Source: Sphaerolaimus hirsutus (lineage: Eukaryota > Nematoda > Chromadorea > Monhysterida > Sphaerolaimidae). From it: 64,000 nucleotides of DNA. A program made the position numbers and the translations under genes. The notes below the pieces were generated by a model. It ran no database searches, was not told the origin of the DNA, and saw only the letters and a program-made list of their open reading frames with translations. Each line of letters starts with the position of its first letter. Position 1 is the first letter of the stretch. Positions 6,001 through 63,754 of this stretch are shown in pieces. Location of the stretch: assembly GCA_964036195.1 (NCBI GenBank), contig OZ038455.1, positions 6,899,855 to 6,963,854 on the forward strand. The letters are read 5' to 3'.

Positions 6001-9000
6001 GGGGGTTTGTGTTCACATTTTTGCATGCAAAAATGTAATTTTTTCACTTTTTATTACTTCCACTAATTTTTCCGGGATCGGGATCCCGGACTTTGGAGTT
6101 TCTCGGGATCGGGATCTGAAAATTTTCGGGATCGGGATCGGGACTGCTAAATCCCGGAATTTCATGGGATCCGGGATCGGGATCGGGATCCCGTTTGAAC
6201 CCTACTTCCATGTACCTCCACAGTGTGTAACTTCACTCCCAAAGTAACAACCTCATTCTATAACCTTGTTTCATCACTATTCCGTGCCAAACTTTACCTG
6301 AAGTCACGAACATTTGACTATAAGGCGATATACGAACGTGTCAACAAAAAATGGATATTATATTATATGATATCATTATATTATGGCGCAAATCACAACT
6401 TATAATGCTATCCCATGGCTCAACAGCCATTGTATGATCATATATAACATCACAGAGTATTGCCACTGTCTGATACATATACCTATATATGAAGGGTGTG
6501 CTTCTAAAAGTACCGATCTACAAATTTTTCAAATTTGAGTTAGGATCATTTTTGGGGTCCCCATAACAATGCGCTTCAAAAAAATATATAATATGTGGGG
6601 GGTGCGAAATTCAATTTTGAGATATGGGGGGTCGAAAAAAGCAAAAAAATCGCAAAATACAGTTTTTGAAATTTTAAAGGTACCGATCTACAAGCTTTTT
6701 CAGCTTTTGTATTTTTAAAAGTACCGATCTACACACATTTTTAAAAATTGTACTTCTAAATGTACCGATCTGCACTTTATTTTTTGTGCTTCTAAAAGTA
6801 CCGATGTCAGCTCGGCATCATCAGCAGCAAAAACTCAATTTGTGCTTTTTTACTATGGGTAAAAGTACCGATCTACATCTATCTGATTTTGTGCTTTAAA
6901 AGGTACCGATCTACATGCTATTAGGGTTCAAACGGGATTGACTTTTCGGGATCGGGATCGGGATTCACTTTGAGATTTCGGGATCGGGATCGGGATTGGG
7001 GTTTCGGGATCAGGATCGGGATTGGTATTTTGAGATTTCGGGATCGGGATTGGCATTTTTTCGGGATCGGGATTGGGGTCTAGGGATAGAGATTTTCATC
7101 ACTGTTCTGGCATTCACAGTTGTTCATAAAGGTCTCAAAACACTGTTGGATGCCAGAAGTGACATAAAATGGACGCTGGGGGTTTGCGTACACATTTTTG
7201 CATGCAAGAATGTCATTTTTTTACTTTTTATAATTTTCACTATTTTTTCCGGGATCGGGATCCCGGACTTGGGAGATTCGCGGGATCGGGATCGGGATTT
7301 GAAAGTTTTCGGGATCGCGATCGGGATTGGTATTTTTGGATTTCGGGATCAGGATTGGGATTGGGGTTTCGGGATTGGGATCGGGATCGGGACTGCTAAA
7401 TCCCGGAATTTCACGGGTTCTGGGATCGGGATCCCGTTTGAACCCTACATGCTATTACCAATTTGTTCCTTTAAAATGTACTGTACTACAAAAATACAAT
7501 TCACTAAATGTTATATAGCTAGTGTTATATGTATAAACAATGATTATACCCATGCATGTGGATACCCAATGGTCGAAATACCCATACCCAATACCCATGT
7601 ATGGGTATTGCATACTCAAAACTTTCAATTGCGATTATCTCAAAATCGATTTTCTGTAGATCAGTACTTTTAGAAGCACACCCTTCATATGTTGTCACAA
7701 GGTCATATCTGGGAGCTTTAAAAAAACGTTTTTTTTAAATAAAAAACATCGAGTGAGAAAAACGTTTTTTTTCAACCCTAGCTGACCTGTCATTTGTTGT
7801 GAGATGTTTCATGGCGTCAGCGCCAGCGCCAATGGCTTCATGGCGTGGCGATTACGAACGACGCCAGCGCCATTCCGCCACCGTCGGTAAAATGTTAGGG
7901 CGGGTGGCTGAGCCCACCCCCCCCCCCCACGTTCGCGGTCCTCCGTAAACAAATAGCGCCCCCTGGTCAAAAATCCTGGATCCCTTGATCCCCTTGTTTA
8001 AACCCAACCGCAACCCATACAAACCCAAACATAACACAAAACACACCTTTCCAATAAGCTTATTCCACTTTACGCCACCCCTGCCAATGGCCCACTTTGG
8101 GACCAAATTCATGGGGACCAAATGTCCATCGACCAAACGGCCCGCGCTATTGCTCTCCGGGTGATGTTGTTGGTGTACTTGTTGGCCATGGTGCACATTG
8201 GTCACATCCAGTTCCAGGGGCTCATTCTGGGGGCACTCTCAGACACCGTAAAATGCCCGGCAAAGTGTCAAATGTTTATGTTGACTGTTAAAAGTCATGT
8301 AAAATGTGCTGTAAAATGGCAAACTTCATTGGCCATTTTACAGGGCATTTTACATGACTTTGGACACTATGCATGACACTTGACATGTTGAAGGGCATTT
8401 TACTAAATCTGAGAGTGGCACCAGGTAATTGTCGCAGGTGGACATGTGGGACACTGATGGCCCTGGCTCAGTGCCAGTGTGACATGGGTCTGGGGATAGG
8501 GTTCAAACGATATGACTTTTCGATATCGATATTCAATATTCGATATTTTTTCAAAATTTTCGATATCGATATTCGATATTCGATATTGAAAAATGGTCGA
8601 TATTCGATATTTCGATATTTTCGATATTCGATATTGCGATATGCTTTTGGTATAGCAAGGATATTTCAAGTGGCATATTGTATTTTCATGTGGTTGCACA
8701 CATGTTTAATTATCTCTTTACTGAAATGTGAATGGTACAAGTGATTTTAACAAGCTTTACATCACTCAATGGTAGAAAATAGAAGAAAAACATGATGAAT
8801 CAAAGTGTATCAGACAAATAACAATTGGTAGATATTACAGTTCATCCTTATAACCTAATTGCTTAAGGGCATGTTGCAAAAACAAAGTATATCAGCGTTT
8901 TCTGGCTTCAAATTTAGCACTCCAACAACAATGACATTATAAATACTGTACTTTTACTCATCAAATACAATACTATAAGCACATCAGATCAACCATAAAC

Positions 9001-11191: not shown

Positions 11192-11421
11192 TAGGGTTCA
11201 AACGGGATCAGTTTTCCGGACCGGGACCGGGACCAAAAAATTTCTAATGTCGGGACCGGAACCGGGACCGGGACTGGGGTATCGGGACCGGGACTGGGAC
11301 TGGCATTTTTCAATTGTCGGGACCGGGACCGGGACTGGGGTGTCGGACCCGGGACTGGGATTTGTCGGGACCGGGACTGCGACTGGGTCATCGGAAACGG
11401 ATTTTTTGGCCAAAATCAACA
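11192..11421. mobile_element. One-armed hAT-like end, GGGACC word
   Basis: Starts TAGGGTTCAAACGGGATC and continues with GGGACCGGGACTGGGG arrays, then stops near 11400 without a second arm or a target duplication. A truncated member of the GGGACC family seen at 26603-27289 and 59933-61803. Confidence 0.65.
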
Positions 11422-13079: not shown

Positions 13080-13084
13080 ACGAG

Positions 13085-33227: not shown

Positions 33228-33444
33228 TGGTGATCGTATCTAATTGTACCTGACTTCTGGACAAAGTCAGGCGCCTGACTCCAGCCCCGCAGCACCCAAC
33301 CGGCACCGCAGCCGGCCGCGACAACCCGTGCGAGCCGCTTGGCGTCTAGACGGCCGGTGGCAACGTTTCGCGGCGGCGGCAGCGGGCCATCCGCCTGTGT
33401 CTTGAACGACTGGGCTGGCAGTGATTGCCGGTGGCCGTTAGCGT

Positions 33445-36400
33445 GTGCGACGCGCAGCGGCACAACGGTGTGCAGTGGGCCGGGCGACCACGGCGCGTGT
33501 CCACACTTGGGTGGATGCCATGACGCACGCGGTGCGCAGCAGAGGGCTGCCTACCGACGAGGAAATGGCAGCACAAGTGGCAGCCGAGGCTGCTGCCGAG
33601 AGAGTGGCGGCGGCGGCACAGGCTGCCCACATTGGTCAATCTCCCGCAGAGTTGCGGATTTTTGTTGACCAGTGTCTGGACCCGACAGACCAAACCGTTA
33701 CCCGATCGGACTTGGTCAATTTAGTGTGCAATTTGTTGGCCCAGCGCCAAGGGGACTGGCCAATGTGCACCTACCCCACCAAATTGAATGACGGGGCTCT
33801 CCGCCGCAAAGCACTTGCCCTCATAAACGCATATGAAAAGTCAAGCAGGGGGGCACCTTTTTTTGTGCTAGTCGACTCTGCAGACGAGGATGATTACAGG
33901 CCGGAGCGGCCTGCCTCGCCAACTTTTCGGAGCCTGGTTGCCTCTCAGGCCGTTGGCCTGGGGGGGAGTGGGGCTCGCGCGCAAGTCAACATGAGCCTCT
34001 CGCGGCACAGCAGTGGGGGCTCGATCGCCACAAACGCGACAAACTACGATCAGTTCACTGCAGCAATCCACGCGCGCGTCGCGGAGCAGGACGCGATAAT
34101 TAAGAAACTACAACAGCAGCTCGTTCAGCAGCAACTGGGGCCCTCGAAGGGCGCCCCGACAGCGGCGTCCCCTGCTGCGGCAAGCAACCCGTGGTCGTGG
34201 ACCAGGGAAGAACGCATCGCCGCCGCCATCGAGGCGGGCCCCTCGCTGATACAGCAAATTGCGGCGTATGTTGATAGGTTCGTCACATCATCGTCTGATG
34301 GGTTGCAAAAGTTGACACCGGCGCTGGCGCTGATTTCCTCGCGCGATCGCATGGGTGTCGGCCAAGTCGCGGCCGCCGCCAGCAAGCAACTGAACTTCGA
34401 CGGCACCCCCACGTGTTCCGCGGGGCCTTTCAAGTTTTGGCTGCACACCACGTGCCTCCAGGCGCTGGGGGTCCCCAACACGCACCAGCAAATGTTCTGG
34501 AACTGCGTGTTTGCGCAATGTCTGAAGGGCGACGCCCACCGGCGCTACATCGCCACGCGCATCGATAAGCGGCACAACATTTTGTACATCCTCGACAAAC
34601 TTGCCGACCTCTACCGCCTTGATCAGCGCATCACATCCGTGACGGACTGGTATCACACCAAGGCCAAGCCCGGCGAGCCGATCGCTGAGCTGTACGCCCA
34701 GTTGTCCGCCAACTTCCACCACATCAGCGACACGATGGCCGACGCCGAGCGCGAGAAAATGATCGGCGATAAGTTGTTCTCCGAAATTGTTTCGCTCGTC
34801 CCGTCGGCGTGCTGGTACATCTGGCATGAAAAGTGGAAACAGGGCGAGGTGTCGCTCGACATGGCGATTTTGAAAATGGACAACGCGCGGCAAGAGTTGA
34901 AGGGCGGGAATCGTTTCGCGCGCTCGGACAACTTCCGCTCGGACAATTTTCGCTCAGACAATTCGGGGGGTCGTTTCCGCCAAAGTGGCCGCCAGAACCG
35001 CGGCAATTGGCAGGTCGAGTCCAAGGCACAGAGCACCTGTGAGGCGCCCCAGGGTGCCAACAGCACCACGCCCAGCGACATGCGCGCACCAAGGGGCGGT
35101 GCCAACTCGACCACATGGTGCACATATTTTCTGCACCCCCGACCGCTTCAGCACGCAGCCTCGGATTGTTTCTTAAACCCGTCATCACCGGCGTACAAAC
35201 CGGAGGTGGCGGAACGTGTTCGAAACGCTCTCGCGCGCAAGGGTGTAAGCGAGGCTGATGCACGCCAAGCCATGATGCGCATGTGCCAGGAGCAGGGCAT
35301 CCCCACGCAGCGCGCCGATTCTCGCCAGCAGGGCGGCCGCCCCAGTCGGGGCCGGCCAGCGCGCTCTACGCAAAAAAACCAGTCGGTCCAGAGCACGCAG
35401 CAGCACAGGGCGGAGCAACCTTTCAGCGGAGAGGACATGGACATGTGGTGTCCGCTCGCGTCCCGGGTCGATGGTGAGGCACCAAAATGCGCCAGCGCAA
35501 CGGTGGCGCTCGACCCAATTGCGTGGATTTTCTTTATGGGACAGCCCATGCGTGGACAAATTGACACGGGCTGTAACATCGGGTTGTTCATCGAGGACTC
35601 GTTGCTCGAGCAAGTGTGGGCCAAAGCAGGGGCCGACCCCCAGGCGGAAAGGGAGAAGTTCAGGCCCTACAACCAGGTGTGTGTGCGCACATCTGGGCGT
35701 GAGATTGATAGCAATTATTTGCGCATCTACGACATGGAAGTGCAGCATCAGGCACCCGATGGTCAGTGGACTTCGGCAACCATCCCCGCAGTGGTAAAAC
35801 TGATGCAGTTCCTCCCTTCATCTGGCCAGCTTTTGATTGGGCGTGCCGCTATTTGGGGCCCATTGAAAATTTTGCATGCAGCAAAGTGTGAACTGGACCG
35901 TTTGGAGGAACACTTCCAGTGTAACAAACATGCACTGTCTACCACGCGCAGCAGCGGCCCAGCAGTGCGCCGAGCCACAGATATCTGCGTGGTGCATAAA
36001 GTGGTAGTGCCAGCAGGGATGCATGTGCACATCGTAGTCGAGACTGAGAAGGGTTGTATTTCACCAGCCCACAATGAGATTGGGCAGCAAATGGCAAATG
36101 CCCCCAACCCCATCACCCATAATGAGCCTGGCCAGCAGCGTGACTGGCCAGAAGGGCTGCAACACATCAGCAAGGCGGCCCATGCCCAGTGCGGCCACAG
36201 CATCGCTAGTAACGTGTTGACAGGCAATCTCAGCCTGGACAGTGACATGGGCGACAAGTTGCCCAGCATTGGCGTATGCAGCCGCAGCAGCAAAGCGGCC
36301 AGCGACCAGCGTGTCATGCAGCAGGAGCTGCACCAGCATAACATGCCAATGGCGGGCATGCTGACTAGGCTGACAAAGGACACAACTCTGCCAAGCCAGG

Positions 36401-36660
36401 ATAACTGCATGGCAATCAAGCCAGATGCAATCATGCCCCCCACGCCACTGGTTCCAATTTGCACATCGCACGGCTTGAAATCCTGTGACTCACATGGCCT
36501 GAGCCCGATGAAAGCCGAGGAGCTTGTGGCTGAGCGCATTCACATTGAGCAGTGTGCAACGACAGCGCCAAGCGGATCGCGCCAACCATGGAGGAATCGC
36601 AAGAAAAAGCGCAAGAAAAAGCGCAAGAAAACCAGTGGGAAAACACAACCCAAGAAGTGA
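33445..36660 (+). CDS. Retrotransposon Gag-protease polyprotein, 1071 aa
   Basis: Residues 1-90 are Ala/Arg-rich; about 210-240 form a Gln-rich coiled coil (KLQQQLVQQQ). A capsid-like helical domain spans about 300-480 (FKFWLHTTCLQALGVP, WNCVFAQCLKGDAHRRY). Next come repeated RSDNF units and RG-rich RNA-binding sequence, then a CX4HX5HX4C zinc motif (WCTYFLHPRPLQHAASDC, about 553-570). A retropepsin-like aspartic protease follows with DTG at 707-709 in GQIDTGCNIGLF. The C-terminal 250 residues are unassigned and end in a Lys/Arg tail. The ORF stops without reverse transcriptase. The true start could be a later Met, for example near 33520. GC-rich codons differ from nearby DNA. Confidence 0.8.
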   Translation: MRRAAAQRCAVGRATTARVHTWVDAMTHAVRSRGLPTDEEMAAQVAAEAAAERVAAAAQAAHIGQSPAELRIFVDQCLDPTDQTVTRSDLVNLVCNLLAQRQGDWPMCTYPTKLNDGALRRKALALINAYEKSSRGAPFFVLVDSADEDDYRPERPASPTFRSLVASQAVGLGGSGARAQVNMSLSRHSSGGSIATNATNYDQFTAAIHARVAEQDAIIKKLQQQLVQQQLGPSKGAPTAASPAAASNPWSWTREERIAAAIEAGPSLIQQIAAYVDRFVTSSSDGLQKLTPALALISSRDRMGVGQVAAAASKQLNFDGTPTCSAGPFKFWLHTTCLQALGVPNTHQQMFWNCVFAQCLKGDAHRRYIATRIDKRHNILYILDKLADLYRLDQRITSVTDWYHTKAKPGEPIAELYAQLSANFHHISDTMADAEREKMIGDKLFSEIVSLVPSACWYIWHEKWKQGEVSLDMAILKMDNARQELKGGNRFARSDNFRSDNFRSDNSGGRFRQSGRQNRGNWQVESKAQSTCEAPQGANSTTPSDMRAPRGGANSTTWCTYFLHPRPLQHAASDCFLNPSSPAYKPEVAERVRNALARKGVSEADARQAMMRMCQEQGIPTQRADSRQQGGRPSRGRPARSTQKNQSVQSTQQHRAEQPFSGEDMDMWCPLASRVDGEAPKCASATVALDPIAWIFFMGQPMRGQIDTGCNIGLFIEDSLLEQVWAKAGADPQAEREKFRPYNQVCVRTSGREIDSNYLRIYDMEVQHQAPDGQWTSATIPAVVKLMQFLPSSGQLLIGRAAIWGPLKILHAAKCELDRLEEHFQCNKHALSTTRSSGPAVRRATDICVVHKVVVPAGMHVHIVVETEKGCISPAHNEIGQQMANAPNPITHNEPGQQRDWPEGLQHISKAAHAQCGHSIASNVLTGNLSLDSDMGDKLPSIGVCSRSSKAASDQRVMQQELHQHNMPMAGMLTRLTKDTTLPSQDNCMAIKPDAIMPPTPLVPICTSHGLKSCDSHGLSPMKAEELVAERIHIEQCATTAPSGSRQPWRNRKKKRKKKRKKTSGKTQPKK

Positions 36661-38640: not shown

Positions 38641-38649
38641 TATTTGTAG

Positions 38650-39215
38650 GGTAGGGCGTACGCCCGATAGATTTTTTAAAGTTCAGCCGCATCAACGCAC
38701 ATGCACCGAGAGCAAGGCGGTTTGTAAAATACACGAAACTATCCCTTAAGGTCGCCGATAGTGCAATATGACGTATATCGCTTCGATTTTAGCCCGGAAA
38801 TCACGATTTCGTCATTTCTTGGCCGTCTGCCAATCCGTTTTTTTTATTTTGTCAGGAGGTTACTCGCATAAGTCGCGCTTTTGTACGCTCGTGCATGCAT
38901 TTCTTTCTTGTCGCTGCCCTCATGGTTTCGGTTGAAGGGAATGAACACTAAAAAAGTGACCACCTGACTACAGAAAAGAGCGACTTATCATGTAACCTGC
39001 CCGACAAAATAAAATAAAAAACGAATTGGCCGATGGCCAAGAAATGATGAAATCATGATTTCCGTGCCAAAATCGAAGTGATATACGTCATATTGCAATA
39101 TTGGCGACCTTAAGGGATGGTTTCATATATTTTACAAACCGCCTTGCTCTCGGTGCATGTGCGTCGATGCGGCTGAACTTTAAAAAATCTGTTGGGCGTC
39201 TGCCCTACCCTACAA
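38650..39215. repeat. Palindrome of about 570 bp
   Basis: GTAGGGTAGGGCGTACGCCC at the left is answered by GGGCGTCTGCCCTACCCTAC at the right. Arms of about 260 bp include ACCGAGAGCAAGGCGGTTTG and its inverse. Flanking CAGATTTAATTCTCCCTACA recurs imperfectly. Non-coding. Confidence 0.7.
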
Positions 39216-39261
39216 ATCTGTAGGGAAAATAAAATCTGGCCCGCTGGTGTTCATATACATA

Positions 39262-40286
39262 GACTAGCAGGATTCTCTCCGACCTTCGGTCGGGTTTATC
39301 ATGTTTTACTATACTTTAACAAATAATGGACACTTGTTACCACATCAATTATGAATCCCTTTGAAAATAAAGCCAGCGGGGTCCACCATCTAATTATTTG
39401 CCAGTTTTTCCCATTGCTTTCTATTTCAGCCTATGGTAATGTCATGTCAAAACTGGTGCATTATCTACGCCACATAATAAGACCCCATTATTTGAAAAAT
39501 TGTAAGCACAAGGGGTTCTTTTTAAAATTTATGGTAATGTAGTGACACGATGCAGTGCAAATTACCATCAGCAATATCAGAAACCCCTGTAGTCACTGTA
39601 TCAAAAAACCCACATGGATCATGTCATGATTTGTAATTTGGTATTGTTATTGTTTGTATTGTTGGTACATTACATATTGCTTTTCTAAAAACATGGCTAG
39701 CATGCGGGCAAGCTGAAGTATAAGATATCCAACCACGGGCTCTGTATGGGTTAGATGGAAAAGAATTGAGTGCTTTATTGACTTTGGACTTCTATACCTC
39801 CACTTTTGACTTCCATATCTTATAGTTCAGCTTGCTTGCATGCTAGTCATGTTTTTAGAAAAGCAATATGTAATGTACCAACAATACAAACAATAACAAT
39901 ACCAAATGACAAATCATGACTTGATCCATGTGGGTTTTTTGATACAGTGACTACAGGGGTTTCTGATATTGCTGATGGTAATTTGCACTGCATCGTGTCA
40001 CTACATTACCATAAATTTTAAAAAGAACCCCTTGTGCTTACAATATTTCAAATAATTGGGTCTTATTATGTGGCGTAGATAATGCACACGTTTTGACACT
40101 ACATTACCATAGGCCAAAATAGAAAGCAATGGGAAAAACTGGCAAATAATTAGATGGTGGACCCCGCGGGCTTAATTTTCAAAGGGATTCATAATTGATG
40201 TGGTAACAAGTGTCCATTAGTATTTGTTAAAGTATAGTAAAACATGATAAACCCGACCGAAGGCTGGAGAGAATCCTGCTAGTAAC
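39262..40286. mobile_element. Foldback element, palindrome of about 1 kb
   Basis: ACTAGCAGGATTCTCTCCGA at the left and its near-inverse at the right; arms of about 500 bp match closely, centre near 39770. A small hairpin, GACCTTCGGTC, lies near each tip. A 63-codon frame in one arm is not evidence of a gene. Confidence 0.75.
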
Positions 40287-41612: not shown

Positions 41613-41964
41613 AGTCCATAATGGAATTATTTAGTGTCAACTTTCCATTTTTTGTTTCCGCTTTTTGGAGCCAAAATATCTACCCCACCTTTCAGGGGTC
41701 CGAATAGGGGGGGGGGGGTAGGGTTGGGGAATCGAACCGAACCGAACCGAGAACTGAGCACTATTTTGGAACCGAGAACCGAGAACCGGAACCGACCTTG
41801 AGAACCGAACCGGAACTGAGAACCGGCACTTATACCCGGAACCAAAGTAAATACCCAAAAGAACCAAAATTTTCTAGGAATCTTAAAGTTTTTGAACAGC
41901 GTTTTGTCAACACCTACATCTAAGCCTTTTAACAGCAGCTGAACATCTTGGTGCATGTTCAGAA

Positions 41965-42741
41965 TTGCAAAATTCATCTGTTTGCAAAATGATTCCAACC
42001 AATGTACTTATTCCAACACACAACAGAAGTGATAAACATATCACATTTGACATTGAAGAGTGTATCAATTTACTTAAAACAGTGATTTCAGAATCATATG
42101 TAGTATTTGGTGGAAAGGTTTTTCGACAAAAATCAGGCTTGCCAATGGGCTGTGCTTCAGCACCAAGCATTGCTTGCTGTAGCTTAATGAATCGTGAGCT
42201 GGAATGGTTAATAAAGAATAAAAATAGTGGTAAACAGCTATACCGGTGCTTCAGATATATTGATGATCTCCTACTGTGTTTTGATGCAGATTCTAACCTT
42301 TGCCCACAAAAATGCACTGAAGAAATCTATCCTGCTAATTTGCCACTTAACAGGACTGATGAGAATGGGGATATTACTGCTTTTCTTGATTTGTCAATCA
42401 ACTTTAGAAATTTAGAATGGCAGCTCTATGACAAACGACAGGATTTCAATTTCCAATGTATTACAGCTACCAATTTCCATAGTGCACAAGCGATTTCAGT
42501 TAAAAAGGGTGTATTTTTTGGACATTGGTTACGTACATTACGCTTGAGTTCAAATTGGGATTTGTTTTGCACTGGCATAAGACCAATAATAAGAGGACAC
42601 AAAGCTAATGAATATAATGTAAATGTGCTGTATGAAATAGCTCTGAACTGCACACTAAAATATAGAGAATTATTCTGGAAACTAGGTAAGCATATAAATC
42701 ATGAAACAATGGAAGAGATACGCATTTTAATTGTAGGGTAA
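41965..42741 (+). CDS. Reverse transcriptase-like protein, Penelope-like relative, 258 aa
   Basis: Palm motifs of a reverse transcriptase: KSGLPMGCASAPSIACC at about 56-72 and CFRYIDDLLLCF around 95, with the catalytic DD. Downstream, AFLDLSINF and LYDKRQDFNF match a signature of RT-like ORFs common in invertebrate genomes and related to Penelope-like elements. The segment before KSGLPMG is short, so the fingers and first catalytic Asp (expected upstream, perhaps in FDIEE) are reduced. No GIY-YIG or other endonuclease is visible. The ORF is intact. Family placement is inference. Confidence 0.65.
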   Translation: MQNSSVCKMIPTNVLIPTHNRSDKHITFDIEECINLLKTVISESYVVFGGKVFRQKSGLPMGCASAPSIACCSLMNRELEWLIKNKNSGKQLYRCFRYIDDLLLCFDADSNLCPQKCTEEIYPANLPLNRTDENGDITAFLDLSINFRNLEWQLYDKRQDFNFQCITATNFHSAQAISVKKGVFFGHWLRTLRLSSNWDLFCTGIRPIIRGHKANEYNVNVLYEIALNCTLKYRELFWKLGKHINHETMEEIRILIVG

Positions 42742-47137: not shown

Positions 47138-47168
47138 GTCCACCGCAGACATCAGCACCCACTGAACC

Positions 47169-47445
47169 ATGGGCTGTGGACATCAGCTGACCCAACTGGC
47201 CGCATGCGTATGCGTGCTGTCCAGCGTGGTTGCCCTGTCTGCCATATTCGCATTCCTGCACACAACAACAACACAACAACAGCTCTACAACAAAGTGGCA
47301 GCCATTCGCATGGAGTTGAGTGGTGATATGCTCCAGTTTGAACTCGATGCTCAACTACTGTGGGAGGATATGTACATCGTGAAGGTTGAAGAAGGCAGGC
47401 AGATGGGTGCGAAGAGACTCAGGAGACAGGCACAGCCGCAGTGCA
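47169..47445 (+). CDS. Collagen exon 1: signal/TM and N-terminal domain
   Basis: Starts at ATG in ACCATGG context, ends TGCA before donor GTAGGT, phase 1. Contains the hydrophobic segment, a predicted helix ([20 protein letters not shown]) and the basic RLRRQ site. Confidence 0.85.
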
Positions 47446-50405
47446 GTAGGTTGCATGGGTTGTTGGCAGATTTGGGGAAATTTCATCACTGTTTTGTTCA
47501 GAGATGTATCCAGGATTTTTGAGGGGTTGGGGGCTGTTTATTTACGGAGCCCAGTGAACGGGGGAAAAGATTTCCAATGAAACATTGAACAGGGGCAAAC
47601 TTTGAAAAATGTGTATGAAAAGTTGCATTTCCCAGGATTTTTTCGGGCTGCAGCCCCCACCATCCCCCCTGGATATGTCCTTGGTTTTGTTATGTACCAT
47701 CATTGTGCACATTCTGGAAACAAAAAAATGATATTGTGTGTATTTCTTTTCTAGAGATTTGTCAGTTATTTTCAGCCATTTCTTTTGTGTATAAGTGAGG
47801 CTCATCCCCTATCATGTAAAATGACCTCAAAAGTGTAACAATTGGTGTAAAATAAAAAATGTTGAGTACGGTGTAAAAAGTCATCTAAAATGTCAAATGT
47901 CATGGAAAGTGTAGTAAGTCATGTATGATGTAAAATTTTATTTTATCAGATTTTAACATACATTAGCACTTTTCATGACAAAGTTCTCAAAAGTTTGGGG
48001 TGCCACCTGTTGCCAGATCTGGGGGCAGTCCCAAGCCCTGTAAAGTGTAAAGTAAAGTGTCAAATGTAAAGTAAAGTGTCAAGTCAAATGTCAAATGTAA
48101 AGTAAAGTGTCAAGTGTCAAGTCAAATGTCAAATGTAAAGTAAAGTGTCAGATGTAAAGTCAAATGTAAAGTAAAGTGTCAATTGTCATGACAAACGATA
48201 AATATACACGAAAAACGAAAAAATAATAAGAAGAAAGTCACGAAATCCGTGTGAAACGGATTCCGACATAGATAGTATTGTGTTGGATGGCGATGGCGAA
48301 CCAAGAATTTCAACTTATCGGCCGCAGCAGAATTTGGGGCAGAAAACGTAGAATTTTTCAAACAACACGATTTTCGATTTTTTGTAACAGCGCAATGCAT
48401 TGATACTCGTTCATTTATGTCTGAAGCGACATTTCGAAACGCCACGATTTTTAATATTAAAACTGTTGATTTGGATCGCAGACCTTATATAAACTTGGCA
48501 CGCTTCCAATTCACTATTGTATACAGTGGAGTAATGTACGAACGAGAATTAAAGGCGCAGCATTTGCATTCGCGTCAGCGATAATGACTGCGGAATGTGA
48601 TTAACCATTAGTTGACACACATATGTCAACTGATTTCTAAACAGTATACAAACAGGCCTATACAAAAACCTTTTTGGGAAGCTGCCAAGTTTATATGCGG
48701 GTTATCCAGGAAAATTATCCATATGGGAACTTGGCAGCTCACCAAAACAGCCATTTGGATAAACCGCTTTGTACACATACATCCCATACATGTGTCAACT
48801 AGTGTGTTGGCCGGCATGAGCGACCATCTCCGGTCGCTAATTCGTATTCCGGGGCCATAATCGGTGACGCGGACGGAAATCCCGCATCTTTTACTCTCCT
48901 TCGTACGATATCCAATTGTATCCACAAATATCCAATACAAACTTTGAGTTGGGTTCAGTTCCATACGTGACCCGATCGGTTCCCGTTGATTTTGGATACA
49001 TACCACATTTATGATCTGGAACATGCCAATATACGATATTGCGGATTCACGATACCGCTGACATATTTACACTATCCATATCGTAATACATTTCATGCGG
49101 ATCTTGTGAATTTCACAAGTATATTTTTCTTTTTTCTTTAATATTTTATGTTTTTCATCACAATTGACATTTGACTTTACATTTGACACTTTACTTTACA
49201 TTTGACTTTGCATTTGACACTTTACTTGACATTTGACTTTACATTTGACATTTGACTTTACATTTGACACTTTACTTTACACTTTACTTTACATTTGACA
49301 CTTTACTTTACAATTTACACGGCTTGGGATTGGCACCTGGTGCCCACCTTAACCATAATAAATGTCAACTGCAATGTCAATTACCTCATTTGGCAGCCTG
49401 CGACGAGCAGAACCGGTGCCCACGTGGAGCAGCAGGTCTCTCAGGTCTAGCTGGAGATGATGGAGAGCCAGGTGCATCAGGTAAAAGAGGTTCACCTGGT
49501 GAAAAGGGAGTTGCCTTCCCCCCAATGGAAATGCCTGATCAGGGCTGCAAGGAGTGCTCCGCTGGACCCAGGGGTCTGCCAGGCAACAGGGGCACTCCTG
49601 GAGAAGTTGGCAGTGGTGGCCAGCCAGGCAATGCTGGAAATCCTGGCAATCCAGGCAGAAAGGGATACACTGGACCAGCTGGGCCATCTGGTGAGAATGG
49701 CTCCCCTGGGAAGAATGGAGAGAAGGTTTGTTGGTTATCGATTTGTGAATATGAAATACAAGGGATAGCAGGTTCCAGCCTGTATATATTTTGTAGTTAG
49801 GATATTAGTCTATGTTCTGTGTCAAAAATTTCATTCTCCAGTCATGATTGACTTAAAACTTGTACTGGCAGTTTAGGCAATATACAACCTACTGTCACAC
49901 TTATCTGATAACTCTATGGCCAATGAACAACCTAACAACCCAATCCACAGGGAAATGATGGCTGCGGTGGCACAAAGGGTGGTAAGGGTGATGCTGGACC
50001 TGATGGGACACCAGGTGCCACTCCCAGAACCTGTAAAGTGCCCTGTAAAATGCCAAATGTCATGCAAAGTGTCAAAAGTCATGTAAATGCGCTGCAAAAT
50101 GGAAACCGTGTTGCCATTTTGCAGGGAATTTTACATGACTTTTGACACTTTGCATCACATTTGACATTTTACAGAGCACTTTACAGGGTCTGGGACTGCC
50201 CCCTGGTAAACGTGGCCAGCCAGGCCAACTGATACAGGCTGGAAATCTGGGCAATCCAGGACTTCCTGGCAGCCTGGGTGAGCAGGGAGATGAGGGTGAA
50301 GCAGGACAACCAGGAAAGAAAGGATTCTCTGGTAGGGGTGGACCTCCAGGACCACCAGGTGAAGATGCAAGCTACTGTGCCTGTCCAAGGAGGACAAATT
50401 CTTGA
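47169..50405 (+). CDS. Nematode-type cuticle collagen, about 289 aa, four exons
   Basis: Secreted structural protein of the body-wall cuticle. Exons 47169-47445, 49397-49725, 49951-50014 and 50206-50405 give about 289 codons, the usual size for this family (290-330). N terminus: membrane/signal segment ([21 protein letters not shown] region), then the conserved cuticle-collagen N-terminal domain ending in the basic cleavage site KRLRR. Cys clusters (QC.C....C) precede the Gly-X-Y blocks, which are split by a non-collagenous Cys-containing stretch ([10 protein letters not shown]), and the tail reads [10 protein letters not shown]. Introns 1 and 2 are canonical. Intron 3 is an introner; continuous Gly-X-Y requires a GT..TG boundary. 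A hAT-like element ends 31 bp upstream, and CCGCAG just before the ATG could be a trans-splice acceptor. Confidence 0.85.
48276..48584 (+). CDS. Orphan open frame inside the long introner-family element
   Basis: 102 sense codons from an in-frame TAG to TAA; the first Met is internal. Composition is protein-like: [21 protein letters not shown] and [17 protein letters not shown] do not recognise it. It could be a transposase remnant, an exon of a captured gene, or chance. It lacks DDE-type or other motifs I can identify. Confidence 0.35.
   Translation, partial: YCVGWRWRTKNFNLSAAAEFGAENVEFFKQHDFRFFVTAQCIDTRSFMSEATFRNATIFNIKTVDLDRRPYINLARFQFTIVYSGVMYERELKAQHLHSRQR
48605..48815. repeat. Small palindromic element
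   Basis: GTTGACACACATATGTCAAC near 48611 and TACATGTGTCAACTAGTGTG near 48788 oppose each other, and GAAGCTGCCAAGTTTATAT is answered by ATGGGAACTTGGCAGCTC. Nested in the long introner-family element. Confidence 0.5.
49397..49725 (+). CDS. Collagen exon 2: Cys cluster and first Gly-X-Y blocks
   Basis: Acceptor TTTGGCAG, donor AAGGTTTGT. Two bases plus 109 codons. Gly-X-Y repeats are interrupted once by a Cys-bearing linker, then continue as [19 protein letters not shown]. Confidence 0.9.
49951..50014 (+). CDS. Collagen exon 3
   Basis: Acceptor CATCCACAG-type (AATCCACAG), 21 codons plus G. Encodes [20 protein letters not shown] and stops at CCAG before the introner. All triplets start with Gly. 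Confidence 0.8.
50015..50205 (+). mobile_element. Introner forming collagen intron 3 (191 bp), apparent GT..TG ends
   Basis: Starts GTGCCACTCCCAGAACCTG and ends GGGTCTGGGACTGCCCCCTG. Contains GTAAAATGCC, GTGTCAAAAGTCATGTAAA and the central palindrome. Removing exactly this segment restores Gly-X-Y phase. The obvious AG (TTTACAG at 50186) leaves the next exon out of frame with a stop. The homologous copies at 62850-63075 and 8227-8421 end CCCCCAG, so this copy has T where they have A. Confidence 0.75.
50206..50405 (+). CDS. Collagen exon 4: last Gly-X-Y blocks and Cys tail
   Basis: Two bases complete a Gly codon, then GQPGQ..., [19 protein letters not shown] and [19 protein letters not shown] to the TGA stop. 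The Cys tail is typical of cuticle collagens. No AATAAA is seen close after the stop. Confidence 0.85.
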
Positions 50406-53713: not shown

Positions 53714-53721
53714 GCTACGGG

Positions 53722-55121: not shown

Positions 55122-58100
55122 GCGGCACTCCCGCACCCTGGCAAATGCAATTGCTACATGTAGAATGTCATGCAAGGTGAAAAGAGTGATACGCCCTGGA
55201 AAATGACAAACTTGTTTGCCATTTTAAGGGTCATTTACGGCATCACCAAAATTACAAGGTGAAAGGGTGAATTCCGTCTCGACGAAGTTGAAATATTATA
55301 CAGAAGAATGCTTAGAGATATCCATCCCTAAAATTGACGTGTTGAAAGCAGTAACTGATATCTATATCGTGTACACAATTTATCCAAAAGCTCCTGTACT
55401 TTAGTTCTCGAGACAAATTTGAGGTATATCAATATTTCACAATTTGTTGGTAACATTTTTCATTTGAAGTGTCGACACAGAGCGAAATAATGATGTAAAG
55501 TGCATATCTCGAGAACCACTGGAGCTTTTTGGACGCGAATCGCGCGCGATATAGATATCGGTTAGTGCTTTCAACATAGGGATTGATATATCTAAGCGTT
55601 CTTGTGCACCTATTTGGATTTTGTGGAGACTGAATTTGTCGTTTCGCATTTTTTTCCATATGATGTAAATGGCACTCCTCTTGACTAGGGATGGCCAGGG
55701 TTTTTTTCAAAGGTAAAAAAAGGTAAAAAACGTTTTATTAAAAAACCCGACAATCGAAACCGTTTTTTTTTAAACCTTCGCCAAAAGTTTTATACTAAGC
55801 ACTAGGTATTTTCCAATTTTTTTGCGCGCAAGCGTGCAATTTCACCTGCACTTTACTATTTGTGGTGGTTTTCATTGGTTCGAAGCATTTTTAGTCTAAA
55901 AGCTTCCATTTGTTTGTGCTAGTATGTCATAATAAGCCATGATATGCTAGTGTAGTATATAATATACAGCCGATGTGCCTCCACATAGTTTTACAGTGTG
56001 AAACACCACTGCCAATGTGTTAGCCTTCTATTGTAACCGAATTTGAACACTATTCCATGGCCAACTACACTTGAAGTCACGAACATTCGACAAAAGCCGA
56101 TATATGCAATTAGTCGACATAGAACGGATATTTTTGACAGAAATCACCACTTATAATGCTATCCCATGGCTCTTCAGCCATTCTATGGCTATATATAACA
56201 TCACAAAGTACTGTCATCTGTCTTTACCTATACATGTTGACTGATGGCCATATCTGGGAGCTTTTGAAAAAACCAGTTTTTTTCAAAATAAAACCCTACT
56301 TTGAAAAAAACGGTTAAAAAAAACAACCCTGTCGTTGAAAAAAAACTTTTTCGGCCATGTCTACTCTTGACACTTTGCAATTTGCATCACATTAGACATT
56401 TCACATGGCATTTTACAGGGTCTGGGAGTGCCCACAGGCTGTACCTTCGCAAATCGTGGACACGTTCAATACGGACACGACGTATGTGTACAGCGATAGA
56501 ATCAGCGAGAAGTTCAACACGCTCAAGGTCGAGGGCGAGCTTAAGGTTGGTTATATCTATGTGACAAGTCAAGTGGTGATGTTTCAGTGAGTGATGTTAA
56601 AAGCGAAACTGGAAATTCTCTCCCAGACCTTCGGTCCGCTTTTGCGGTATTCTGCACTTTCTTCACAATATTGTCTGTATAAAAACGCCAAACCGACCGC
56701 AAAAACAACGCAAACCTGATCGCGAAATGCGGTCGCAAACCTCCTGTTGTAGTGCTATTTTTATAGTTTTACATGGATTTTTACAGATATTGATTATGGA
56801 TAGAAAGGCATTTTGTAGTAGGCCTTGTATTGCTTCACCCATGTATCATTCATTGATGATACTCCCTACTCTTTTCATGGTGGGATAGAAACAGTAAAGC
56901 AGTGTTTACATAGTTTCGTGTGCCGACAAAAACATTTAGTGAGAAAGTTCCATAATTCTGGAATAAAGTTCCATATCTGCAAGAAAAAGCAGTGAAGTTT
57001 GCTTACTAGTTAAGTGTACACACATTCCCATTTGCAGGTAATTTGAGCATGTTGTTCAAGACTTAAGCCGAGATTAGAGCTCAGCGTGATTTAGACGTAA
57101 AATGACATGTAAAATGATGTTGTAAAATAAATTACATGAGTGTGGATAATGCTATGGGTCTACAATTTTCTAAGGAAAATATATGAATCTATACCTTAAT
57201 CATGTCCAATACAGAGTGTTGTCAGCCACAGCTAGAGCGAACTGAAAAATTCAATTTTTATCATTGATCAGGGAACAAAATTTACATTGCACGTCAATGG
57301 TTGCGTCTGCATGCACTCTGTGGCTGATGACACTCAGTATTGGACACGATTAAGGTACTAATTCATATCTTATCCTTAGACAATTGTAGACCTGTAGCAT
57401 GATGCACACTTATGCAATTAATTTTACAATGTAATTTTACGTGTCATTTTATGTCAAATTACCGCTGAGCTGTAATCTCCGCTTTATAGGCATTTGAAAA
57501 CAAATTTCAGTTGTCGGTTCGGTTTATGTTTTGAAAAGGAACCGACAACTTAAATTTTCAATTCTGAATGAAATTTTCATATTCCTTTTCAAATGCTTAT
57601 AAACATTCGGCAAATCGGCAAAGCTTATAATTATCTGCAAATCGGCATGTGTGTAGACTTGATTAGCGAGTACACTCCACTGAAGTTTCTTGCAGACAAG
57701 GAACTTTATTCTGGAATTAATGAACTTTCCCACTTGATTTTTTTGTCGGCAGACAAGACCGTATAACCGACCCTTTAAAGAATTTTCTTTCAGCTGAGCA
57801 TTCTGTCTGGCTTGGTTTCGGTGTCCGGGCATGGCGAGTACTTGAAGACATCAAAGGACACCGATCGCGAGGCCAGTGTGTCACTGGTGTCACACATGAA
57901 AACGAAGGTGTGTGATTTCAATTATAGGTAGAGTTACATACCTAATTACTGTATTACCTTGAATACACCCCCCCTTGAATAAACCCCTCCCTCAAACCCC
58001 CCCTCTTGAATGATGTACGTCATGTATGCAGTGTATTTACATGATGCATTTTTTGATGCCAGTTAGCATCGCAGACACACATATACCCTAAATCCTAGAA

Positions 58101-61100: not shown

Positions 61101-63754
61101 ATCGGGTGAGATTTTGAAAATTTCACATCACCCGATAACCCGGGGATGACTGTATATGTGTTTATACGCATATATAACTGTATATACACAAAAACCCTTC
61201 CCTAACGTCACATGGTCATCAGTTTTAACGTGTGTTCTGCATTGTACAGATCACAAACTGCGGTATTTGTCATGTACGTTCACGTTACACTCAATCTTAG
61301 GGGGGTATTTCGAGGGGGGTGTTTATTATTTCCTCAGCCGAAATTTAGGGGGGGTATTTCGAGGGGGGGTTAATTCAAGGGGGGGGGGGTTAATTCGAGG
61401 TAATACGGTAATTGAGAACCTGCAGGTTTACCAGTTTGGCTGAAACAGAAAACAGAAAATTTAGCTGGAAAATGAAAAAAAGCTGCAAAAACAGACAATT
61501 GAGCCGCAAAATGGAAAAAAGGCGGAAAAACTGAAAATTTAGCCAGAAATCGGAAAATAAGCCAGAAAAACGGAAACGGAAACAGAAAAAAATTTGCAGC
61601 CAGAAAATGGTAACGGAAATCGATTTGCCTGCGGAAAGCGGAAATGGAAAATGGAAAGTTGACAACCTAGTCCGACATTTGAAAAAAGCCAGTTCCATTG
61701 CTGGTTCAGACACCCCAGTCCCAGTCCTGGTCCCAGTCCCGGCATGAAAAATATCTCGTCCCGGTCCCGGTCCCGGTCCAATAAACTGGTCCCGTTCGAA
61801 CGAGGGGGGTGGTTATTGATTCATAGTGGGCATTTTGAGTGGGTATTACTGGGGGGTATTTCTAGGGGGGGGGGGGGTCGGTATTTTGAGAAAAGCATTA
61901 AAAATCTCTAAACATTCCAGGCGAAGCTAGGCTGGCTAGACGTGAGCGGCTCGGGCGACGGTCAATACAAGGAGAGCGAAAAGAGCGAGCAGAAAGACTA
62001 CAAGCTCAAGTTCAACGTGGACGCGTTGCCCGGCGTCGACGACCTGCCCACGTCCGTCGAGGAGGCGGTCGAGTTTATGAGAAAACTGCCCAGCCTCATG
62101 CTGGCGGCCAACCAGGGCAAGGGCACCGTGCTGTCGTACACGCTCGTGCCACTCGCGGCCCTGAAACCGGAGATCGACGCACTGGTCGGTGTTTGAGGTT
62201 TTCGGGTAGTGATGTAAAAGCGCCATGGCGCTTGGCGCTTTTCTGCTGTGGTGTTATTGGCACTTGGCGCCATGCCCATGAAAAGCGCCATGGCGCTTTT
62301 GGCGCTTGGCGCTACTTTTGACCGCAGCCAGGAACAAAATGTCTGGCGCTGACGCTTGGCGCTAGCGCCGAAACAAAAAGCGCCATGGTGCTTCTGGCGC
62401 TTGGCGTCATTTTGCTCTGGCGCCAGTGGCGCTTGGCGATAGGGGTCGGCAAAGCGCCATGGCGCTTTTGGCGCTGGGCGCCAATGTTCTGGCGCTTTTC
62501 ACACCACTATTTTAGGGTAAAGGACAATGATAAAAATGCGATGCTTATTAGTGTGGGTCTGTCTGAGGTGCAGTAAGTCGGAACATCTTCTTAAATTTCG
62601 GAGTAAAATGATTGAGTAAATAGTGAAAAGCCAATTTTAAGACGTTCCTTGGAGACGAGCTCTCGGAGTCTCTCACACTCGAAATCAGTGTCTCAGGCTT
62701 CACTGGATCGGATCATCCATCGCATAGAAGACACATTTATCGAGGAGGTGGAGAAAATGTTCGACGAGCTGCAGGAGTCCCTGCGAATGGTCAACGACAT
62801 GCACGCGGACCTGGAGGCGAGTGATTTCTGCGTGTCCGACCAGGACCAGGTGGCAGTGCCAAGCCCTGTAAAGTGTAAAGTAAAGTGTCAAATGTAAAGT
62901 CAAATGCAAAGTAAAGTGTCAAATGTAAAGACAAATGCATAGTAAACTGTCAATTGTCATGCAAAGTTCAGTAATGAAATCTTCTCTTTTTTGTTTTGAT
63001 TGACACTTAACTTTGCATTTGACTTTACATTTGACACTTTACTTTACACTTTACAGGGCTTGGCAATGCCCCCAGATACGCGTGCGCAACCGAGTGCGAG
63101 CCATTCGCCAGGCGCAGATTTTGAAGAAAGCCGAAATCAGGTGCGAATTTCTCAGGTTGCCAAGTGACGTGAAAAGTAAAGCGAAAACTAGAGTATAAAA
63201 AGACATTATGTAAAATATAATAGGTAACAGGGGAATTAAGGAAAGTTCGGCGTTGTAATTTATGTCAAAGTAAGCCCATATACACAATTCCACATGTTTA
63301 TTGTGTTAAAAGATAATTAGTTTATTTCAATTGGTTTAGCGTAGTGATGGAATGGCGCCATGGCGCTGGCGCCATTTGAGGGCGCCAAAGGGCGCCGCGC
63401 CATGGCGCCATTGGCGCTTGGCGCCCTTTTTCTGTGGCGCCCTTGGCGCCTGGCGCCCACATTCTGAAAGGCGCCATGGCGCCCTTGGCGCTTGGCGCCC
63501 TTTTTCCGTGGCGCTCTTGGCGCCTGGCGCCCTGCTTTAGAAGGGCGCCAAAAAGGCGCCAGCATGGTTTCACAGTGAGTGCTGTGTAAACGAAAAAAAA
63601 AGAAAAACGCATCCGTGGATGATCTAAATTCGCCAGAAAAATGGACGGAGTGGTGTCAGTGGGTGGAAATCTTTCGTCCAACGGTTCATCAGATCTGTCT
63701 GACGGATCAGAAGACAAGAATGATGGACCGTCTAAATTGCAAAATCATAAATAA
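55017..63754 (+). CDS. SNTX-domain (stonustoxin/neoverrucotoxin-like) protein gene, eight exons
   Basis: About 368 residues in eight exons: 55017-55121, 56438-56545, 57794-57907, 59473-59652, 61921-62184, 62697-62849, 63076-63140 and 63637-63754. All phases fit; exons 1-6 are phase 0. Landmarks of the SNTX N-terminal domain, a perforin-like fold, appear in order: ALGRVARLGELY (exon 1), SGLVSVSGHGEYL (exon 3), ATHIVIGQQWG (exon 4), LPSLM and SYTLVPLAAL (exon 5). Exon 6 is a charged helix. The longer fish toxins continue with thioredoxin-like and PRY-SPRY regions; these are absent. Most homologues are non-venom cellular proteins, so toxicity should not be assumed. No signal peptide. Introns 1 and 6 are introners; intron 4 holds transposons nested four deep. 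Intron 1 uses a GC donor. Confidence 0.7.
55262..55675. repeat. Foldback segment inside the introner
   Basis: CTTAGAGATATCCATCCCTA and GTTGAAAGCAGTAACTGATA at the left are answered by ATCGGTTAGTGCTTTCAAC and TAGGGATTGATATATCTAAG at the right. Non-coding. Confidence 0.6.
55686..56363. mobile_element. hAT-like element with shared core and AAAAACGG-type ends
   Basis: Starts TAGGGATGGCCAGGG and ends TTTTTCGGCCATGTCTA. CTCTTGAC is duplicated at 55678-55685 and 56364-56371. Core as in 9262-9903 (GCGCGCAAGCGTGCAATTTC, CCATGGCTCTTCAGCCATT). Confidence 0.9.
56438..56545 (+). CDS. SNTX-like exon 2
   Basis: Thirty-six codons, acceptor CCCACAG at the introner's edge, donor AAGGTTGGT. Phase 0 at both ends. 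Encodes alternating beta-type sequence (TYVYSDRISEKFNTLK). Confidence 0.7.
56546..57793 (+). mobile_element. SNTX-like intron 2 with a 420-bp palindrome
   Basis: 57064-57485 is a near-palindrome: CCGAGATTAGAGCTCAGCG against CGCTGAGCTGTAATCTCCG, and TCTACAATTTTCTAAGG against its inverse. Outside it, 56910-57060 and 57490-57780 are the two arms of the TGTCGGC / GGAACTTTATTCTGG family, so the palindrome is nested in that element. Confidence 0.65.
57794..57907 (+). CDS. SNTX-like exon 3
   Basis: Thirty-eight codons, acceptor TTCTTTCAG, donor AAGGTGTGT. Carries SGLVSVSGHGEYL, the best family landmark. Confidence 0.8.
57908..59472 (+). mobile_element. SNTX-like intron 3 with several elements
   Basis: Contains C-run pieces (57945-58010, 58830-58965), an AGAGTTGTTAAAAGG left end (58159), a left-truncated GCGCCA hAT-like element (about 58405-58783, ending TTTTACATCACTA) and a TA-target element at 59015-59441. 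Confidence 0.6.
59015..59441. mobile_element. TA-target element, TTCTATTGGAGGTGCC word
   Basis: Starts CCGTATTTCTTCTAATAGAA and ends CATTAGAAGAAATACCG with TA flanks. The word CCGTTCTATTGGAGGTGCC is repeated four times. It ends 31 bp before exon 4 of the SNTX-like gene. Confidence 0.75.
59473..59652 (+). CDS. SNTX-like exon 4
   Basis: Sixty codons, acceptor CTTTTCAG, donor AAGGTTCAT. Phase 0. Carries LPSATHIVIGQQWGA. Confidence 0.8.
60501..61409. mobile_element. C-run TA-target element, third layer
   Basis: Left ACCGTATTACCTTGAAATAC and right TTAATTCGAGGTAATACGGT oppose each other, with GGGGGGTTATTCGAGG runs. Contains the element at 60674-61152. Confidence 0.65.
60674..61152. mobile_element. 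Tigger/pogo-like MITE, innermost layer
   Basis: Starts CAGTCGTCCCCGGGTTAACG and ends CGATAACCCGGGGATGACTG, TA on each side. The ends resemble known Tigger (pogo) termini. The interior iterates GGTTCCCCGGGTTA and ATCGGGTGAGATT. No transposase ORF. Confidence 0.8.
61921..62184 (+). CDS. SNTX-like exon 5
   Basis: Eighty-eight codons, acceptor ACATTCCAG, donor CTGGTCGGT (weak). If not spliced there, the frame stops at 62195-62197. Phase 0 continuity with exon 6 favours splicing. GC-rich; carries EEAVEFMRKLPSLM and SYTLVPLAAL. Confidence 0.75.
62207..62509. mobile_element. hAT-like element, GCGCCA word, in SNTX-like intron 5
   Basis: Starts TAGTGATGTAAAAGCGCC and ends GGCGCTTTTCACACCACTA. TTTTCGGG (62199-62206) and TTTTAGGG (62510-62517) flank it. 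It begins 22 bp after the exon 5 donor. Confidence 0.8.
62697..62849 (+). CDS. SNTX-like exon 6
   Basis: Fifty-one codons, acceptor GTGTCTCAG. It ends GACCAG directly before the introner GTGGCA. Acidic amphipathic helix (IEEVEKMFDELQESLRMV). Confidence 0.75.
62850..63075 (+). mobile_element. Introner forming SNTX-like intron 6 (226 bp)
   Basis: Starts GTGGCAGTGCCAAGCCCTG and ends CAGGGCTTGGCAATGCCCCC plus AG. Arms iterate GTAAAGTGTCAAATGTAAAG; the right arm is their inverse. Canonical GT and AG sit at the extreme ends and the flanking exons fit in phase 0. Confidence 0.9.
63076..63140 (+). CDS. SNTX-like exon 7
   Basis: Sixty-five bases, phase 0 in and phase 2 out, donor CAGGTGCGA. Strongly basic helix (RVRNRVRAIRQAQILKKAE). 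Confidence 0.6.
63342..63580. mobile_element. hAT-like element, GGCGCCA word, in SNTX-like intron 7
   Basis: Starts TAGTGATGGAATGGCGCC; arrays of GGCGCCCTTGGCGCC. The right end, near CATGGTTTCACAGTGA, is diverged and no matching octamer was found. Confidence 0.6.
63637..63754 (+). CDS. SNTX-like exon 8, C-terminal, tentative
   Basis: Acceptor TTCGCCAG; one base completes the phase-2 codon of exon 7, then a Ser/Asp/Gly-rich tail (NLSSNGSSDLSDGSEDK) to TAA at 63752. AATAAA overlaps the stop. The antisense frame is also open and low-complexity, so confidence is moderate. Confidence 0.45.

What the first reader, a model, noticed from the sequence alone, without database searches (positions are those of the whole stretch)
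8227..63075. Introners: one transposon family builds introns in all three host genes
At 8227-8421 (minus), 50015-50205 (plus) and 62850-63075 (plus), with an interrupted fourth at 55122-56437, an inverted-repeat element exactly fills an intron. The left end is GTGSCASTSCC, the right end GGSASTGCCCCCAG, and internal words (GTAAARTGTCAAATG) are shared. Seen: identical architecture and phase-compatible exons at each. Known: introners in algae, some protists and tunicates arise from DNA transposons that carry splice sites. Inference: an active intron-generating family in a nematode-like animal. CWG flanks each copy and may be a short target duplication that supplies the AG.
Basis: partly seen in the sequence, partly recalled or inferred. 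Interest (0 to 1): 0.92.

Follow-up and report, generated by a model that had tools for sequence, protein, structure and literature searches.

The report
Jumping DNA that becomes introns
In a worm-like animal genome, a small jumping DNA element sits inside the protein-coding parts of many genes and seems to be cut out of the message so exactly that the protein is unharmed, and nearly half of the well-identified cases break the usual rule for how introns end.

Summary
The elements are real, and the introner reading holds in outline, with corrections. They belong to an inverted-repeat MITE family found across the 348 Mb genome (1,493 perfect 20-base copies of one end), flanked by CAG or CTG as in NuwaI transposons. 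Of 52 further copies tested, 32 lie in coding sequence by homology or a codon test. In 20 loci recognised by homology, removing the element plus about one CWG restores the protein, and the element brings in-frame stops in 20 of 20. The GT end is 5' in 19 of 21 recognised loci (E2 included) and 22 of 22 automatic calls. So exonic copies most likely act as introns: the element supplies GT, the right CWG the 3' end.

Corrections: E1 is not shown to lie in a gene; E2 ends in CTG, not CAG; a fifth copy (48019-49339) was missed; the host is nematode-like but unnamed.

The surprise: 8 of 19 recognised sense copies end in TG, while 9 ordinary acceptors read here are AG and human TG sites are reported never to work alone. 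There was no RNA evidence and no comparison with intron-less relatives.

The parts
8227..8421 (-). Copy E1 (195 bp with its right CAG); left flank CTG, right flank CAG on the minus strand. Host gene not shown.
48019..49339 (-). Fifth copy, about 1.3 kb between its CTG flanks, GT end on the right; probably inside an intron of the collagen gene, not an intron by itself.
47166..47519 (+). Open frame holding the probable collagen N-terminal exon (weak Col_cuticle_N match, E 0.007, below the curated cut-off).
49249..49797 (+). Open frame holding a collagen Gly-X-Y exon, followed by an ordinary intron ending ...CCACAG at about 49949.
50015..50205 (+). Copy E2, which interrupts the collagen exon between ...GDAGPDGTPG and KRGQPG...; begins GTGCC and ends CCCCCTG (GT-TG).
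50206..50405 (+). Collagen 3' exon with stop codon; the codon split by E2 starts in the exon before it.
55122..56437 (+). Copy E4, interrupted by other sequence; begins GCGGC and ends CCCACAG. Host exon has a weak MACPF_SNTX match (E 0.041, below cut-off).
62643..62849 (+). Exon before E3; coding frame, family unknown.
62850..63075 (+). Copy E3 (GT...CAG, 226 bp) of a diverged subfamily (66% to the E2-group consensus).

Best explanation
The elements are a non-autonomous, nearly palindromic DNA transposon (MITE) of NuwaI type (PHIS/PIF-Harbinger superfamily, CWG target duplication) that acts as an introner. It inserts at C-W-G, often in coding exons. In the sense orientation its first bases GTGCC after the left CWG give a CWG|GT donor, and the second CWG copy gives the intron's last three bases, so removal of element plus one CWG leaves the reading frame and usually every codon intact. 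Shown from sequence: copies, ends, flanks, exact restoration of conserved proteins, in-frame stops in the copies, orientation bias. Inferred: removal happens in RNA by the spliceosome; the hairpin brings the two ends together and hides inner splice-like words; and where the right copy is CTG, the TG end serves as 3' splice site.
For: Genome-wide family: 883 CAG and 610 CTG perfect right ends, 655 CAG and 561 CTG perfect left ends, 0 for the reversed-pattern control in each of the four. CAG or CTG flush on both sides in 38 of 52 copies. Exact restoration: no gap at the junction in alignments to solved relatives for peroxidase, NEK7 kinase, NPAS PAS domain, cation efflux (weak, E 0.002), bicarbonate transporter, TRAP1 and FGAM synthase; Pfam domains run across the junction for innexin, MFS, AMP-binding, HSP90 and GATase_5, SDR and VWA. 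In-frame stops in 20 of 20 recognised copies. The exact join scores better than joins off by 1 or 2 bases in 38 of 52 (expected 17; p 5e-9). Orientation is GT-first in 22 of 22 automatic calls (p 5e-7) and 19 of 21 recognised loci. Flank GC is at least 50% in 26 of 38 and 17 of 20 copies against 12.5% of random windows. The two reverse-oriented recognised cases (L046, L089) both keep CAG on the coding-strand right side and a GTAAA word 18 bases in, which would be an in-frame GT-AG solution.
Against: No transcript data. 8 of 19 recognised sense copies end in TG, which human introns are reported not to use constitutively; TG-ended copies are as diverged from the consensus as CAG-ended ones (0.943 against 0.942), so they are not simply newer. 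Inner words such as TTTACAG look like good acceptors and would shift the frame, so they must be ignored somehow. In some TG copies an in-frame AG lies downstream (L036 +6, E2 and L038 +18), so a shortened protein is possible there. The exact join was not the best in 14 of 52, and 20 of 52 copies are neither recognised nor pass the coding test. 14 of 52 lack a clean CAG or CTG on one side. Below the threshold the codon test is unreliable: it picks the wrong strand for the recognised L040 and L078. No DNA from relatives shows the empty site. The transposase that moves the family was not found.
Confidence: 0.82

Rival explanations
1. The copies in exons are cut out of DNA in the soma (an IES-like or developmental excision using the CWG ends), not spliced from RNA.
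For: Exact CWG-to-CWG restoration whether the right end is CAG or CTG; two recognised copies are in the wrong orientation for GT; TG-ended copies are as diverged as AG-ended ones.
Against: A DNA mechanism gives no reason for GT-first orientation in 22 of 22 automatic calls and 19 of 21 recognised loci. Right ends favour CAG over CTG (883 to 610, p 2e-12) more than left ends do (655 to 561).
Confidence: 0.07
2. The exonic copies are ordinary recent insertions that damage the genes: pseudogenes, silent duplicates or alleles segregating in the sequenced animal.
For: MITEs are abundant here; a few host loci have near-identical duplicates (L040/L085, L045/L061); TG-ended copies lack a standard acceptor.
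Against: Copies nearest E2 are about 10% apart from each other, which is old for unfiltered recent alleles; host exons are conserved genes with open frames on both sides; two Patched-like paralogues share the insertion at the same site, and their left exons differ by 13 synonymous and 4 non-synonymous codons (over 32 codons to the right the figures are 6 and 10, but that stretch may run past the exon). Orientation bias would not arise.
Confidence: 0.07
3. Pre-existing introns were invaded by the MITE, which then came to fill them.
For: The copy at 48019-49339 does seem to lie inside an intron.
Against: In 17 of 20 recognised loci the host protein is restored by removing exactly element plus 3 bases, and in the other 3 by one base more or less, so no remnant of an older intron is seen. 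Seven ordinary introns read in two myosin genes are not copies, and the TIR profile has no hit in those two loci.
Confidence: 0.04

Closest known systems
Introners as surveyed by Gozashti et al. 2022 (PMC9860276)
   Same: Similar introns in unrelated genes, sequence shared to the splice edge, TIRs and TSDs, TSD supplying part of the splice signal, enrichment in genes.
   Different: Among animals and land plants they report two groups, both animals, and a word search of the main text gave no hit for nematod or Harbinger. Here the target duplication is CWG and many copies would end in TG. In the parts read, their families show rare GC or GA donors; TG acceptors are not mentioned there.
NuwaI transposons, PHIS superfamily (PMC4482050)
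   Same: CWG target duplication, TIRs, mainly animals.
   Different: Most autonomous NuwaI candidates carry a DDE and a Myb/SANT gene; none was found here with these TIRs. No role as introns is given in the passages read.
Non-canonical introner elements of Amoebophrya (PMC7789003)
   Same: Inverted repeats that form a hairpin at the intron ends, direct repeats at exon borders, many ends that break GT-AG.
   Different: A dinoflagellate; its ends vary widely, whereas here GT is kept at the donor and mainly A or T varies at the acceptor (passages).
TG 3' splice sites in human introns (PMC2374985)
   Same: A U2 intron can end in TG.
   Different: There TG is used only beside an AG site and is stated not to work constitutively (outline and passages); here TG copies have no partner AG at the edge.
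Non-GT/AG introns of tunicates with changed U2AF (PMC13326754)
   Same: An animal lineage in which introns escape the AG rule; introners are named there as a possible source of weak splice sites.
   Different: Ordinary introns read here are GT-AG; U2AF was not examined here (abstract start and passages).

Membership tests
Introner | Many introns in unrelated genes alike up to both splice edges | tested here: met
   Recognised host genes are unrelated (peroxidase, NEK, PAS, innexin, TRAP1, FGAM synthase and others); copies align end to end, mean pairwise identity 0.90 in the E2 sample.
Introner | Insertion into coding sequence that becomes a new intron with the protein preserved | tested here: met
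   No gap at the junction in protein alignments; in-frame stops in 20 of 20 copies; 38 of 52 best at the exact join. Intron birth is inferred from sequence.
Introner | Copies are spliced out of transcripts | not testable with these tools
   No RNA data held.
Introner | Intron absent at that position in relatives | not tested
   No relatives of this genome are held; only proteins were compared.
Introner | TIR and/or TSD signs of DNA transposition | tested here: met
   TIRs GTGCCACTCCCAG and GGGGCAGTCCCAG; CAG or CTG on both sides in 38 of 52.
NuwaI (PHIS superfamily) MITE | CWG target duplication | tested here: met
   38 of 52 have CAG or CTG on both sides. The two W bases differ in 12 of those 38 (9 CTG/CAG, 3 CAG/CTG in GT-first orientation), so it is not a strict duplicate.
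NuwaI (PHIS superfamily) MITE | Autonomous partner with DDE and Myb/SANT genes and the same TIRs | tested here: inconclusive
   The abundant DDE_Tnp_4 family found has other ends (GGCCCCACGCACACTAG) and no hit to this TIR profile in 6 of 6 loci read. The search was not exhaustive.
Canonical GT-AG spliceosomal intron | AG at the 3' end | tested here: not met
   8 of 19 recognised sense copies, and 11 of 22 automatic calls, end in CTG or TTG. The other 11 recognised copies end in AG (three with the edge moved by one base); of the other 11 automatic end in CAG and one (L052) has a moved edge.

The most novel reading that the evidence does not exclude
The family has seeded an animal genome with a large class of constitutive GT-TG introns (or introns removed without need of AG at all), in which the hairpin of the transposon, not the AG dinucleotide, defines the 3' edge. 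Both CAG and CTG target copies would then work, which doubles the sites where a CWG-targeting transposon can enter an exon unharmed. This could be by altered U2AF, or by a non-spliceosomal cut at the hairpin base.
Probability: 0.4. Interest if true: 0.92.

Novelty: new variant of a known kind. Interest (0 to 1): 0.78.

Why it matters
Introners are the best known source of mass intron gain, and the 2022 survey found them in only two animal groups. A nematode-like animal with a simple, countable family would let intron birth be studied in a multicellular ecdysozoan. The family also poses a sharp question about splicing: the same element enters CAG and CTG targets, giving natural AG and TG endings in conserved genes. 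That makes the need for AG at the 3' splice site directly testable in one genome.

Tried and rejected
Long-ORF test across junctions: rejected, because long open frames are common by chance here. Autonomous partner by DDE_Tnp_4: a different transposon family. Myosin genes as a place to find element introns: none found in the two genes read; used as ordinary-intron control (seven introns with both ends read by eye, all GT-AG, plus two further acceptors, both AG). Translation through the element: rejected, in-frame stops in 20 of 20. Hairpin kept by selection in exonic copies: not supported, paired fraction 0.950 in 34 copies counted as exonic and 0.954 in 22 others; the excess of compensated double changes (93 against 25.5 in shuffles) may come from subfamilies. 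PDB look-ups for the E3 protein and the chitin-synthase-like L084: nothing useful. The first pairing of ends in sample 2 took inner repeats for ends and was redone. L045 (duplicate L061) scored slightly better reversed (9.5 against 8.8) and failed the margin, so it is counted neither way.

Rows dropped before counts: L001 (the window copy itself), L008 (same place as L003), L060 (ends not paired), L005, L007 and L056 (orientation unclear), L061, L079 and L085 (duplicates of L045, L074 and L040); E4 was left out of frame tests. For one search I gave 149 of the 184 open-frame pieces listed. One search names families but not members, so the assignment of those hits to L004, L036, L040, L043, L044, L053, L058, L059 and L064 is by my reading and, for L036, L043, L053 and L059, later single searches; an attractin-domain hit (E 3e-11) was not placed.

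Full report
What is in the window. They have two related ends: a GT end (GTGCCACTCCCAG in most young copies) and a GG end (GGGGCAGTCCCAG). Just outside both ends of these five lies CAG or CTG. E2 and E3 are near-perfect palindromes; E2 as RNA folds at -123.3 kcal/mol, z -17.7. E2 interrupts a collagen with Gly-X-Y on both sides, and its removal rejoins the frame. E3 also rejoins an open frame. E1 has no shown host gene. The fifth copy probably lies inside an intron of the collagen gene.

The family. The window lies in a 348 Mb, 762-contig genome. A first look found 3,942 candidates for E2 and 2,344 for E1. Exact counts of 20-base ends are whole-genome: right end with CAG 883, with CTG 610; left end with CAG 655, with CTG 561; the reversed-pattern control gave 0 each time. 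Each pattern fits one sequence form of the end only, so left and right counts are not the same set of copies. In 20 random 10 kb regions (200 kb) 14 pairs of ends were found, which extrapolates roughly to 24,000 in the genome; one of the 14 (L015) has a clear coding call (p 0.003). The CWG flanks match NuwaI of the PHIS superfamily (PMC4482050, passages). A transposase with these ends was not found; an abundant DDE_Tnp_4 family has other ends.

Copies lie in coding exons. Of 38 and 20 with paired ends, 26 and 17 have flank GC of 50% or more, against 12.5% of random windows (p 2e-15 and 3e-13). Pfam found An_peroxidase, Patched, sterol-sensing, bicarbonate transporter, DHC_N1, attractin, cuticlin C-terminal, cation efflux, PAS and LRR domains beside the elements (149 of 184 open-frame pieces). 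With the element and one CWG removed, the proteins align to solved structures without a gap at the junction: peroxidase, NEK7, NPAS, cation efflux (weak), bicarbonate transporter, TRAP1, FGAM synthase. Cyclin B matched on one side only. Innexin, MFS, AMP-binding, HSP90 and GATase_5 domains run across junctions, TPR units lie on both sides of one, and SDR and VWA domains run across two more. L084 looks like chitin synthase, but its Pfam matches are weak and below cut-off. These are similarity-picked samples, not a random sample of the family.

Tests of exactness. Using codon preferences from the 20 recognised loci, each left out in turn, the exact join beats joins shifted by 1 or 2 bases in 38 of 52 copies; chance would give 17 (p 5e-9). 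Some of the 14 misses have edges that differ by one base (L059, L077, L080). Counting recognised loci and automatic passes together, 32 of 52 are coding (20 recognised, 22 passes, 10 in both); the other 20 are undecided. In all 20 recognised loci the element brings stop codons in frame, so it must be removed before translation. In 17 of 20 the removed piece is exactly element plus 3 bases, in the other 3 one base more or less.

Orientation. All 22 copies passing a fixed threshold have the GT end on the 5' side of the coding strand (p 5e-7); the Patched paralogues L058 and L064 are counted separately there. In the recognised set with E2, 19 are GT-first and 2 (L046, L089) are reversed; with the paralogues counted once, 18 to 2, p 4e-4. 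Both reversed ones keep CAG at the coding-strand right edge and carry GTAAA 18 bases inside, so a GT-AG splice adding six residues is possible. Orientation dependence is what RNA splicing predicts and what DNA excision does not.

The 3' end. Among the 19 recognised sense copies, the right edge is CAG in 11 (L004, L040, L043, L044, L050, L059, L074, L077, L078, L080, L087) and CTG or TTG in 8 (E2, L036, L038, L053, L058, L063, L064, L084). Among the 22 automatic calls it is CAG 10, CTG 10, TTG 1 and a moved edge 1. Ordinary introns in two myosin genes, seven with both ends read by eye and two further acceptors, are GT-AG, and none is an element. CTG-ended and CAG-ended copies are equally diverged from the consensus, 0.943 (9 copies) and 0.942 (12 copies). 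Two Patched-like paralogues 176 kb apart both carry a CTG-ended copy at the same site; their elements are 95% alike and their left exons differ by 13 synonymous and 4 non-synonymous codons; over the 32 codons to the right the figures are 6 and 10, a stretch that may run past the exon. So TG-ended copies seem to be tolerated for long. Some selection for AG may still exist: across the genome CAG is 59% at right ends and 54% at left ends (883 of 1,493 and 655 of 1,216; difference z about 2.8, worked by hand). In humans TG sites are reported only beside AG sites and as unable to act alone (PMC2374985, passages). Downstream in-frame AGs exist for some TG copies but not others; L002, a coding call without homology, has no AG in the first 53 bases after the edge.

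Mechanism. Most likely the copies in exons act as introns: target CWG, donor from the element, acceptor from the second CWG. The hairpin may bring both ends together and hide inner words such as GTAAA and TTTACAG; this is inference, and no sign that the stem is better kept in exonic copies was found. The differing W bases of the two target copies (12 of 38) point to a mismatch repaired at random during insertion; this too is inference.

Host. The nematode names among the peroxidase relatives are Trichostrongylus (60% identity over 79% of the query) and Panagrolaimus (51%); the top hit (58%) is unnamed and a coral is also in the list. Cuticlin and cuticle-collagen-like domains are present, the latter weak.

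What is in print. Of the library searched, 67 papers hold a word beginning 'introner' (40 listed), 16 hold it with 'nematode' (15 listed) and 1 with 'Harbinger'. I read parts 1-3 of 7 of PMC9860276 and passages of it and of PMC9169325, PMC4482050, PMC7789003, PMC2374985 (with its outline) and PMC13326754. None of what I read describes this family or introners in nematodes. A later survey of introners that I recall, which included horizontal transfer, did not appear in the listing, so an earlier report cannot be excluded.

Noticed in passing
G000 genome-wide; loci L029-L034: A DDE_Tnp_4 (Harbinger-like) transposon with ends GGCCCCACGCACACTAG is present in very many copies; six read are 97-99% alike, with an apparent intron in the transposase (4-5 TGA inside the match). 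Probably recent.
   Followed up: partly
CWG flanks of the family, L002-L089: The middle base of the CWG pair differs between left and right in 12 of 38 copies with CAG or CTG on both sides, more than about 6% divergence would suggest; perhaps a mismatch made at insertion.
   Followed up: partly
window 39324-40219 and 38642-39217: Two long inverted repeats (405 bp arms 96% and 207 bp arms 90% complementary) of unknown kind.
   Followed up: no
window 33442-36660 (+): A 1072-aa open frame in a GC-rich stretch that looks, by eye, like a gag-type retroelement protein; not searched.
   Followed up: no
window 41899-42738 (+): Reverse transcriptase fragment (RVT_1, E 5e-6, just under cut-off).
   Followed up: no
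L058 and L064: Patched-like paralogues share a CTG-ended element; the element (95% alike) looks less diverged than synonymous sites of the left exon, which hints at conversion or constraint.
   Followed up: partly
L019 8142-8533, 9763-9920; L082: Some copies have ATG or CAT instead of CAG or CTG on both sides, so the target rule is not absolute.
   Followed up: no
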